Positions 59,339 to 62,847 of a stretch of DNA of 64,000 nt are shown here, one piece after another. Location of the stretch: positions 310,001-374,000 of the forward strand of contig JAKJXP020000029.1 in assembly GCA_022225965.2 (NCBI GenBank). The letters are read 5' to 3'. The notes under the pieces were generated by a model that saw only the letters and a program-made list of their open reading frames with translations, did not search any database and was not told the DNA's origin. Made by a program: the position numbers and the translations under genes. Position 1 is the stretch's first letter. Each line of letters begins with the position of its first letter. The DNA comes from Diatrype stigma (Eukaryota; Ascomycota; Sordariomycetes; Xylariales; Diatrypaceae).

Positions 59339-61578
59339 GTCGTGTGATGCGATGCAAGACAATTAGACACATGCATGCACACATACGCATCTACATACTT
59401 GGGTACACAGGCGCTCTGCCTTGTAGCCAGAAGCAGCCGCCGTAACAGTATGACGACGACAGGGGACCAGAAACTCGGGACTTAGATATATAGACACTCT
59501 TGTTAGAATACCTGGTCTTCATAGCGACAGATACGGACACAAATCCGGGCACAGACGCCAACAGAAAATCGCATTGCAGGCGAAGCAATTGGGATGGGTA
59601 TCACTTGAGGGCGTTGGGACTGCAGTTTGAGGGTACAAAGCGCATATGCACATACTTTGTCTTCGAGCATCTTAACCTAAGCCTGTGTGTGGGCACTTAC
59701 CACAAACCTACCCTAAGGTACTAAGCCGACTTGTCCTGCGCACCTCATCGAGTAATACGTCGCCGCCCCCAATGCGTCTTACACTCTCCTCTCATACTGC
59801 CCTTTTCCTCTGGGGGCAGAGAGTCAAACCTGCAAGGCACAACAGCGAGCTTCCATTGAACCAATCGAAGCTTGCTTGGCGTGAGGTAGGTACAAATCGT
59901 ATTACACATAAAGGACCAGGCAAGCTAGATTGGGCGCGCAATACTCGTGATATGTCGATATATCGATGTGTAGACTGCAGCTGATGGCTCAGCACATGGA
60001 CATGTGAGTTCGTGGGTAGGTACGTAGGTGAGTACCTAAGTAGTCAGCAAACCCATTAGCATAACATAGGTATCGTGAAGTGAAATGCGTTTAGGTAGAC
60101 ATGGTCACGGCAACTTTGAAGTCCTGTTCAAGGCTGGGCGGGCTTCTATTAAGCCCGATATTTCACCATCAAGCTGCTAACTCCGTAGGCTCCTGACTTG
60201 TCATAATGATGTATCCGCGCCCGTCGATACGACTTAATAACCACACCGGCCCCTATGACCTTATCGTACCTATGGGAAGAGAGGAGTAATGTAGCTGGGT
60301 AATCCCATTGCATCATATACGACGCAAGCAAGCATGCGCGGACGCTGCTGCAGCTCACTGCAGCGGACGAGAAGCGGACAAGCGTAGTAGGCGCTTGTAG
60401 ACCTGGACGGGATCGGACCGCGCTCGGTATTGGTTGGCTGCTCCAGCCTCAGTATGTAGCTATATTGCGTTGCATCGGACGTGAGGTGGTAGCTGGATAG
60501 CACGCGATACCCTCCCTGGCTTGCCTGCATGTGTCCATATATTTATCTTTCCAATCATCCATCCACCCGTTTTCGTTGACCTACGCTGCGGTCCCGTTGG
60601 TAACTTGGTAGCTCCAAGCTTTCCTTTGCTTTTTCCGGTTCAGACTGAAATCATCCGCCTGGTTTTTTGCAAGAGGAAAACGTGCTATAATTTGAAACTT
60701 GATAGCTTTTTGCCCAATTGGCCATTTACCTTCTTGATAGAGGGTCGGAAAATTGTTGGTGTATACTAGGTAGGTAGGCGAGTATATTTATCTCTTTCCC
60801 CCTTTCTTTCGTGGTGGACCAACCCAACTTCACTTATCATGCCCTCCTGGTCGGTCTACCACCACTGACAGTTATCGGTCTCGGGTTTGTAATGTCGGGT
60901 TAGTCATTTCACAACTGTCGATGTAGGCATATATGTATCTAGTACTCGGGACAGTTCTCGTGTTATTAGGTTCGAAAGATTCATGCAAGTGTCAACTTAG
61001 ATACCTGTAGCAACCTGGCCTACTAGCCCACTTATATATACAACATGTATGTGGATATACGTGTAGTTGACACTGGACGAATGCAGAGCTTCAGATGGTA
61101 TTTACTCGTCTTCATATATACCTAGGTATACAGTTACTTTCCCTTTCGCAGTTTAATCTGTATCTCGTTAAGTCGGGCCAAACTCGCAACTTATATGTCT
61201 CATATTCTCTTTTCATGTATGGTAGTCAAGTTGTAACTACGTATTGACAGATTGACAGATTGACATTAATTAAGCGCGTAGCCGCCAACGCGGCACTATC
61301 CATGGATGTCTCCTCGCTCGTTTACACCGAGACCCTTTTTCGCCTTCTTTTATCCTTGAACTTACGAGACTTTGCTTCATAGATGGGGACCAGAAAACCG
61401 GGACCAACACCCGAACCCTAGCTCCATCCCTTGTCTTAACTGTCCCGAAGCGGCTTCGTGTGTTGAAAGCGAACTGCTAAAGGACGGCAAAGGACTTTGC
61501 TACATCATTTGCGCTAATCCCGAACAAGGTCGGTATATCTTGAAACGAACGAAAATCCACACCTGCACCTGCATATCC
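59339..61578. other. 2.2-kb intergenic region, no gene seen
   Basis: AT-rich, with TAGGTA/ACCTAGGTA motifs (near 60015, 60765, 61127). A CGGGCTT-CTATT-AAGCCCG hairpin lies at about 60140-60158, and TTGACAGA repeats at 61245-61265. No RNA gene or protein domain recognised. Confidence 0.6.
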
Positions 61579-61587
61579 AGTTAGGCA
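61579..61587. repeat. left target-site duplication AGTTAGGCA
   Basis: Nine bases directly beside the left TIR, repeated exactly in the same orientation beside the right TIR at 62119-62127. Confidence 0.9.
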
Positions 61588-61647
61588 CAATCCGCCTATA
61601 CACACCGGACAAAAACGATATACACACCGGACATTAACCGCATTTGG
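61588..61647 (+). repeat. left terminal inverted repeat (60 bp)
   Basis: Exact reverse complement of 62059-62118. Holds the 14-bp motif TATACACACCGGAC at 61597-61610 and 61619-61632. Confidence 0.95.
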
Positions 61648-61807
61648 TAAGGTTAGCGCATGAGCCACCCGTGCCACACCTTAAGCCACCTTCAAGCCTG
61701 GCACCCTCTAAGTCACTCCCTAACATCCACCACTTACCTACATACTACCTACCTACACCTACACCTACACATACGCCAGCACCGCCAGTGCGCAGCGCTA
61801 CAGTTGC

Positions 61808-61861
61808 GGGTTAGGGTTAGGTCCCGTGCAAAGATACGGGTTAGTTAGGGTTAGGGTTAGG
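61808..61861 (+). repeat. interstitial telomeric repeats (TTAGGG)
   Basis: Two short blocks, GGGTTAGGGTTAGG at 61808-61821 and GGGTTAGTTAGGGTTAGG-type sequence at 61838-61861, 16 bp apart. The unit equals the usual filamentous-fungus telomere repeat. Confidence 0.92.
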
Positions 61862-61950
61862 TCCGGGGGGTTTGGGGGGACGGTGGGAGTCCCCCCATTT
61901 GGGTATATGTATGTAATTGTGCTGTGAAGGTATTGGTGATGTGTTGTTGG

Positions 61951-62034
61951 GTGTATTAGGTGGTGTATTAGGTGGTGTATTAGGTGGTGTATTAGGTGGT
62001 GTGTTAGGTGGTGTGTTAGGCTGTGAGATAGGTG
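61951..62034 (+). repeat. 12-bp minisatellite GTGTATTAGGTG (seven units)
   Basis: Four perfect units of GTGTATTAGGTG followed by GTGTGTTAGGTG, GTGTGTTAGGCT and GTGAGATAGGTG. The unit contains TTAGG, so it may derive from the telomeric repeats next to it. Confidence 0.92.
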
Positions 62035-62058
62035 GTGGATGGGTAATGTGGAGTGCGT

Positions 62059-62118
62059 CCAAATGCGGTTAATGTCCGGTGTGTATATCGTTTTTGTCCG
62101 GTGTGTATAGGCGGATTG
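62059..62118 (-). repeat. right terminal inverted repeat (60 bp)
   Basis: Exact reverse complement of 61588-61647. Confidence 0.95.
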
Positions 62119-62127
62119 AGTTAGGCA
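62119..62127. repeat. right target-site duplication AGTTAGGCA
   Basis: Exact copy of 61579-61587, directly beside the right TIR. Confidence 0.9.
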
Positions 62128-62847
62128 AGCTGGCAACCTTGGAAACTGATAGGCCATGGGCCGACACACTAGCTCGAAGGCGCCAAGACGACCAATGATC
62201 ATGCAAGAAAGATTCCCATGTTACCTCCTTAGGCATGTACTGAACGGGCAACTCTTAGGTACCTCACGTATATGCAGCCCCTCTGCTAGCTCAGTGTATG
62301 TACATGTATGTATATTCTGAGACCCGTGGCAGCGTGGGCAGTCCAGGCAGTGTGGGCAGAACTCGTAATCGAGCCCCTCCTTTCCGTCCCCCTGCCTCGA
62401 CCGCAGTACTACGAGTCTACGACGAGCTGTCTGGGCTGTGTAGGCACGCCTACTGGAACCACCGCTAGCTACTGTACTTAGCCAACGTCCCTACATACCT
62501 AGTACTAGTACCTCCTAACTAAAGAGCTAAAAGTCAATTGGGGTTCCAACTCCCATTTTCTCTTCGTCACTGTTCGTTCCAAGCGATATTCCCAATCGGC
62601 CGATTTCCGTCTTCCTGTACTCCCGTTCTGTATATTATCTCCAAACTACTCCCTACCATTGATGCTTGTCTTAGTCGCCCCCGAATTGGCTCTTGCTTAA
62701 TCCGTACTCTCACCACTATTGTTTGTCACCCCTGGTTGTCATACATATTGATACGTCGTGATTAGCTGGTTAGGTAGTGAGCGACGGGTAGAAGTTATCC
62801 CTGCAGCCATCGAATATCGAATTGCTGGTTGGTGCTGGACAGAATCA

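What the first reader, a model, noticed from the sequence alone, without database searches (positions are those of the whole stretch)
61579..62127. Intact small Mutator-like transposon with perfect 60-bp TIRs and 9-bp target duplication
The 60-bp arms are exact reverse complements, and AGTTAGGCA lies directly outside both ends. This is the complete signature of one transposition event. The element is 531 bp and has no transposase, so it must be moved in trans by an autonomous relative. The lack of any mismatch points to recent activity and to no RIP damage since insertion.
Basis: partly seen in the sequence, partly recalled or inferred. Interest (0 to 1): 0.85.

Follow-up and report, generated by a model that had tools for sequence, protein, structure and literature searches.

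The report
Small Mutator-type transposon, RIP-killed helpers
A 531-base jumping DNA element without genes of its own, one of several dozen in a fungal genome in which every gene-carrying relative that was found has been wrecked by mutation, and whose ends come in about fourteen versions that may have changed together with the DNA-reading part of the enzyme that moves them.

Summary
It belongs to a family of dozens in a 49-Mb fungal genome. Of 40 relatives fetched, 36 have an exact 9-bp duplication; of 11 further complete elements found by end pattern alone, 9 do. For one sister copy a repeat copy without the insertion shows a precise empty site.

Full-length partners exist: nine Mutator-like (PF10551) copies of one clade, in four end types. 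One has our end type (56/60 and 53/60) and its own 9-bp duplication. All nine carry many in-frame stops; copies of one type differ almost only by transitions, as RIP makes.

Beyond the finding: each arm is two boxes 22 bp apart (TA-NNNN-Y-ACCRG), in about 14 types, the same on both arms. Between full-length lineages, RIP-proof purine/pyrimidine differences peak in both ends and in one transposase segment next to a zinc DNA-binding domain. This suggests that ends and reader diverged together; it rests on four lineages plus one, weaker, independent protein pair.

The parts
61579..61587 (.). left 9-bp target-site duplication AGTTAGGCA
   Evidence: read directly; identical to 62119-62127
61588..61647 (+). 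left terminal inverted repeat, 60 bp
   Evidence: 60/60 complementary to the right arm
61597..61608 (+). box 1 of the left arm, TATACACACCGG
   Evidence: column analysis of 72 arms; genome pattern, 119 hits against 0 in the reversed control; role as binding site inferred
61619..61630 (+). box 2 of the left arm, TATACACACCGG, 22 bp inward of box 1
   Evidence: role as binding site inferred
61648..62058 (.). interior, 411 bp, non-coding; related interiors occur in MITEs with other end types
61808..61864 (+). telomere-like GGGTTAGGGTTAGG stretches inside the element
   Evidence: two copies of GGGTTAGGGTTAGGTCC at 61808-61824 and 61848-61864
61947..62030 (+). 12-bp tandem repeats (GGTGGTGTATTA-like)
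   Evidence: family D1, spacing 12
62059..62118 (-). right terminal inverted repeat, 60 bp
62076..62087 (-). box 2 of the right arm
62098..62109 (-). box 1 of the right arm
62119..62127 (.). right 9-bp target-site duplication AGTTAGGCA

Best explanation
A non-autonomous Mutator-type MITE. Shown: inverted ends, 9-bp duplication, multicopy family with different duplications, a full-length MULE (L077, C11) with matching ends and its own 9-bp duplication, and a precise empty site for a sister copy. Inferred: a transposase encoded by an intact element of the L077 type bound the two boxes of each arm (predicted fold of the nearest intact relative: WRKY-GCM1/FAR1-like zinc domain, a helical segment, an RNase H-like DDE domain), cut the element out and joined it to a target cut with a 9-bp stagger, which repair turned into the duplication. 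RIP then disabled every full-length relative found here, while most short copies kept their base composition, so this copy is probably stranded now. The confidence given is for this; that ends and reader co-evolved is the novel case.
For: 36 of 40 fetched relatives with an exact 9-bp duplication and 9 of 11 found by the end pattern alone; 49 of 49 duplications different; end pattern 61+58 hits against 0+0 in the control; full-length elements of 4.07-4.16 kb with both ends; L077 arms 56/60 and 53/60 with CCAAAACGG on both sides, 4101 bp; among 30 MULE loci the 8 with the end pattern are the 8 of one transposase clade; PF10551 at E 2e-19 in the L051 read-through; empty site; stops in all copies and transitions only between copies of one type.
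Against: No intact helper in the assembly, so movement in trans is inferred. The interior shows no clear match to a full-length MULE (only L041 of 48 gave weak hits), so it is not a simple internal deletion of one of them. L077 ends differ from ours at 4 and 7 of 60 positions. Four of the first 40 relatives lack an exact duplication.
Confidence: 0.93

Rival explanations
1. Ends and transposase segment both look fast for separate, dull reasons: the segment is a weakly constrained linker and the ends drift in small, bottlenecked lineages; no co-evolution.
For: Only four independent full-length lineages. Change in the segment is not clearly above third-codon-position change (18/84 against 59/438, p 0.066), so positive selection is not shown. 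The segment was picked from the same data. A second coding peak (aa 489-512) exceeds it in the three comparisons with type A. In P0003/P0004 the segment (10/34) is hardly above neighbouring stretches (0.20-0.23).
Against: 21 of 60 columns against a maximum of 18 in 5000 permutations; end columns 42/116 against 125/1093 in other non-coding columns, p 9e-11; ends are fixed within a type, so they are not unconstrained; in 6 of 6 between-type comparisons the segment exceeds the zinc domain, the catalytic domain and the other coding columns apart from aa 489-512.
Confidence: 0.4
2. Any member of the MULE clade can move any end type; end types are historical labels, not specificity classes, and this MITE was moved by a lineage other than the L077 type.
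For: About ten of the roughly 14 end types have no full-length partner found. All types share TA, ACC.G and the 22-bp spacing.
Against: Within a type the ends are 0.99-1.00 identical while interiors are 0.89-0.95 (15 elements), so the whole of both boxes seems to matter; missing partners may have been lost or destroyed by RIP.
Confidence: 0.25
3. Another superfamily with 8-9-bp duplications (hAT, Merlin, P, Kyakuja-Dileera-Zisupton; duplication lengths recalled) moved it.
For: Duplication length alone does not separate these.
Against: The same ends flank PF10551 transposases, with 9-bp duplications, in several full-length elements.
Confidence: 0.02

Closest known systems
Hop group and other fungal Mutator-like elements (MULEs)
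   Same: PF10551 transposase, long inverted ends, 8-11-bp duplications; Ascomycota; fungal subgroups with FAR1 or zinc-finger motifs (PMC6446971, passages seen); Verticillium VdMULE1-3 are 3.4-3.6 kb with 73-86-bp ends (PMC3441728, passages seen).
   Different: Ends here are about 60 bp, built of two boxes 22 bp apart, and come in about 14 types in one genome; no tree with Hop was built.
Fungal MITEs, e.g. those of Mycosphaerella graminicola
   Same: Short, non-coding, one family with an 8-9-bp duplication; families grouped by shared ends but different interiors (PMC4522978, passages seen).
   Different: Here related interiors carry different ends, and the cognate full-length elements are identified.
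VANDAL elements and VANC proteins of Arabidopsis
   Same: A protein encoded by Mutator-type elements and its repeated target motif diverged in concert among related families (PMC5735166, abstract and one results section seen).
   Different: VANC is an anti-silencing protein with targets in non-coding regions; here it would be the transposase and the terminal boxes, and the link is statistical only.
ISCth4 transposase (IS256 family; placed with prokaryotic Mutator relatives from recall) and AFT2 zinc domain
   Different: 17-18% identity; neither protein has this order of domains in one chain.

Membership tests
Mutator-like elements (MULE superfamily) | 8-11-bp target-site duplication (range from PMC6446971) | tested here: met
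   9 bp; 49 exact cases, all different
Mutator-like elements (MULE superfamily) | long terminal inverted repeats | tested here: met
   60 bp, 100%; 14-500 bp reported for MULEs (PMC6446971)
Mutator-like elements (MULE superfamily) | MULE DDE transposase in the autonomous partner | tested here: met
   PF10551 in L077 and the others with these ends; absent from the MITE itself
Mutator-like elements (MULE superfamily) | transposase acts on these ends | not testable with these tools
   needs a binding or excision assay
MITE | short, non-coding, multicopy, shared ends and duplication length | tested here: met
   48 MITEs held, mostly about 450-630 bp, three outliers of 299, 743 and 999 bp
MITE | precise insertion (empty site with one copy of the target) | tested here: met
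   shown for the sister copy L030 against L031 (1 of 37 joined flanks gave such a match among held loci); not testable for this copy
Hop group | transposase falls in the Hop clade | not tested
   no tree with Hop was built

The most novel reading that the evidence does not exclude
One fungal genome preserves a natural series of about 14 transposon recognition types: ends with four sites each, whose boxes changed in concert at all four sites together with a DNA-reading helix of the transposase, several times faster than the rest of the element. This would be diversifying co-evolution of a transposase and its ends, perhaps driven by escape from MITE parasitism, and visible in mutated copies because purine/pyrimidine counting ignores RIP.
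Probability: 0.35. Interest if true: 0.72.

Novelty: new member of a known kind. Interest (0 to 1): 0.5.

Why it matters
The element itself is a well-preserved member of a known kind. The family around it makes an open question testable: which residues of a eukaryotic Mutator transposase choose its ends, and whether end specificity evolves fast enough to shed parasitic MITEs. It also gives a clean case in which RIP has disabled every full-length copy found of a clade while most short copies remain, and shows that counting only purine/pyrimidine changes recovers history from RIP-damaged transposons.

Tried and rejected
Recombinational swapping of ends between MITE bodies: first suggested by identity values (L009/L017 body 0.90 with ends 0.63-0.65; L016/L023 ends 1.00 with body 0.84). 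Trees did not support it: type A, and types H plus M, are clades on the body tree too, and the one misfit (type K) is not rejected (p-AU 0.108; 15 of the 48 elements, 228 columns). Dropped as a claim; only the difference in rate remains. The 15 elements are those of types A, H, M and K; the heavily mutated L024 was left out.

RIP indices on MITE interiors are raised in all 48 listed, this copy included, but are confounded by TA-rich tandem repeats; base composition and direct substitution counts were used instead. This copy's freedom from RIP therefore rests on GC content and on the direction of differences from its sisters.

Structure from alignment A2, which held read-through rows: mean pLDDT 32, useless. 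The second job, with 11 database proteins, gave 64. The sequence search of solved structures gave two chance hits. Rfam: no match in 61400-62300.

Empty site of this copy: flanks single-copy, no other strain held.

Full report
OBSERVATION. The window holds arms 61588-61647 and 62059-62118, 60 of 60 complementary, 411 nt apart, flanked by AGTTAGGCA at 61579-61587 and 62119-62127. With the settings used no other inverted repeat of the window comes near it. The element has no transposase frame.

HOST. The window is C29:310001-374000 of a 48.98-Mb assembly in 224 contigs. One window protein (arylamine N-acetyltransferase) has its closest named relatives in Monosporascus (62-64%), followed by Hypoxylon, Daldinia and other Xylariales; two unnamed ones are closer (84%, 70%). 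The host is thus most likely a xylarialean ascomycete; its species is not known to me.

FAMILY. BLAST in the own genome gave 102 matches (62 candidates, 40 scored, so a lower bound). I fetched 40 places: 36 of 40 have an exact 9-bp duplication at the ends. The other four: L020 is cut by the contig end, L024 and L046 have a near-duplication with one mismatch, L036 shows one arm only by the end pattern (L046 read by eye). A pattern for two boxes (TA-NNNN-Y-ACC-R-G, 22 bp apart) gave 61 forward and 58 reverse hits in the genome against 0 and 0 for the reversed control; only about 100 of the 119 places were listed. Of 14 further places fetched from that list, 11 hold both ends; 9 of these 11 have an exact 9-bp duplication at the offset predicted from the pattern, one has a mismatch (L092), one is shifted by a base (L095). 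With four full-length elements, 49 exact duplications are known and all 49 differ.

EMPTY SITE. For this copy none can be shown: its joined flanks match only its own locus. Of 37 joined flanks compared with the loci held, one gave a match across the junction: L030, against an uninterrupted repeat copy in L031, 195 columns at 97.9%, 45 of them past the insertion point, with ATCTTTCAT once.

FULL-LENGTH PARTNERS. PF10551 gives 39 matches in the genome (38 over the family's cut-off), each with stops inside. Eight of the 30 fetched loci carry a matching end upstream of the transposase. After the far sides were fetched, six of the eight show both ends: 4.07-4.16 kb, four with exact 9-bp duplications, two (L051, L054) with one A/G mismatch (L051 read by eye). 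L077 has our end type: 56/60 and 53/60, CCAAAACGG on both sides, 4101 bp. A search with the intact relative P0004 finds nine long copies of this clade, all with many stops; a DNA search finds the same nine, the one on C61 split by about 6 kb. Of 30 MULE loci, the 8 with the end pattern are exactly the 8 at 59-95% identity to L051; the other 22 are at about 34% or less and lack the pattern in the 3.3 kb held of each. The MITE interior is not a piece of these MULEs: of 48 interiors only L041 gave hits, weak ones.

RIP. L051/L054 differ by 0.145 transitions and 0.000 transversions per site over 4071 columns; L067/L069 by 0.146 and 0.001 over 4068. So they were practically identical when inserted and then changed by C-to-T mutation. 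MULE interiors have GC 0.26-0.34 against 0.52 for the window. This MITE's interior has GC 0.52. RIP can hit MITEs: L024 (GC 0.28) has 83 C/G-to-T/A differences from L009, 2 in the other direction and 4 transversions; L095 (GC 0.32) looks alike. That RIP tends to spare short repeats is known; a passage of PMC4522978 says so.

END TYPES. Over 72 arms (36 elements) A3, C6, TA10-11, ACC17-19, G21, G30, TA32-33 and ACC39-41 never vary; C1 is kept in 71. The 48 MITEs held show 17 strings of box, spacer and box in one arm, which I merge by eye into about 14 types. The arms of an element agree at 50 to 55 of 55 positions (36 elements; 11 more at 51-55). Full-length partners were found for four types (named A, B, D, F here; ours is A). 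Among 15 elements of four types, ends are 0.99-1.00 identical within a type and bodies 0.89-0.95; between types ends are 0.51-0.76 and bodies 0.81-0.91 (means). So related interiors carry different ends. Swapping by recombination was tested by trees and is not supported.

CO-DIVERGENCE. RIP makes transitions only, so I counted columns in which the four full-length types differ as purine against pyrimidine. Over 3956 gapless columns the rate is 0.095. Both ends stand out (42/116 = 0.36) against other non-coding columns (125/1093 = 0.11; p 9e-11). In the coding part one place stands out: 21 of 60 columns at aa 238-258 of the L051 read-through, against a maximum of 18 in 5000 permutations. Changes at codon positions 1 and 2 are more frequent there (18/84 against 49/876, p 4.5e-6; optimistic, because the segment was picked from the same data), but not clearly above third-position change elsewhere (p 0.066), so positive selection is not shown. 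Type-specific residues lie in a motif like IRxKKLRLYxR[ND]I[L/N/Q]N[VI]R[N/I/T/A]K (RIP also alters some residues). In 6 of 6 between-type comparisons this segment exceeds the FAR1-like domain, the catalytic domain and other coding columns; but a second segment (aa 489-512) is higher still in the three comparisons with type A. Within types, pairs differ by 0 to 2 transversions in the regions compared, so copies of one type are not independent and the evidence rests on four lineages.

INDEPENDENT PAIR. Two intact relatives from sources without organism names, P0003 and P0004 (81% identical), differ at 5/97 residues in the MULE domain, 32/86 in the FAR1-like domain and 10/34 in the equivalent segment. 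Other stretches differ at 0.07-0.23, the C-terminal end at 0.45. So the zinc domain clearly stands out here; the helical segment stands out against the catalytic part (p 0.0007) but hardly against its neighbours. Their ends are unknown.

MECHANISM. Most likely a transposase of the matching type binds the two boxes of each arm, pairs the ends, cuts, and inserts with a 9-bp stagger. Shown: the anatomy, the duplications, the empty site of a sister, a partner with the same ends. Inferred: binding, pairing and cutting in trans. No living source was found, so the copy is probably stranded unless another strain supplies the enzyme.

VERDICT. As an element it is a new member of a known kind. The family adds a testable and possibly unusual case of fast, concerted change of transposon ends and their reader.

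Noticed in passing
L101:182-1624 (C20) and L102:229-1230 (C51): Two open reading frames without stops that carry a FAR1-type DNA-binding domain (L101 above, L102 just below the Pfam cut-off) and no MULE domain by Pfam; L101 also matches the transposase up to the helical segment. Possibly host regulators related to the transposase DNA-binding part.
   Followed up: partly
window 61808-61864: Telomere-like TTAGGG repeats inside the MITE; 3 to 8 units in most sisters of the types with this interior. Function unknown.
   Followed up: no
C61:258241-268415 and C33:268338-284184 of G000: Paired end patterns about 10 and 16 kb apart. The first is a MULE split by about 6 kb of other DNA; the second was not read.
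   Followed up: partly
22 of the 30 MULE loci among L049-L078: MULE transposase copies of other clades, also with stops in the domain, without the two-box pattern in the 3.3 kb held. Their ends were not determined.
   Followed up: no
L041:1441-1738: The 999-bp MITE holds a 298-bp inner stretch with 66-nt inverted arms (60 of 66 matching), perhaps a nested element.
   Followed up: no
L030 and L031, e.g. L031:1550-1810: A further small repeat family with inverted arms lies at both places and served as the target of the L030 insertion.
   Followed up: no
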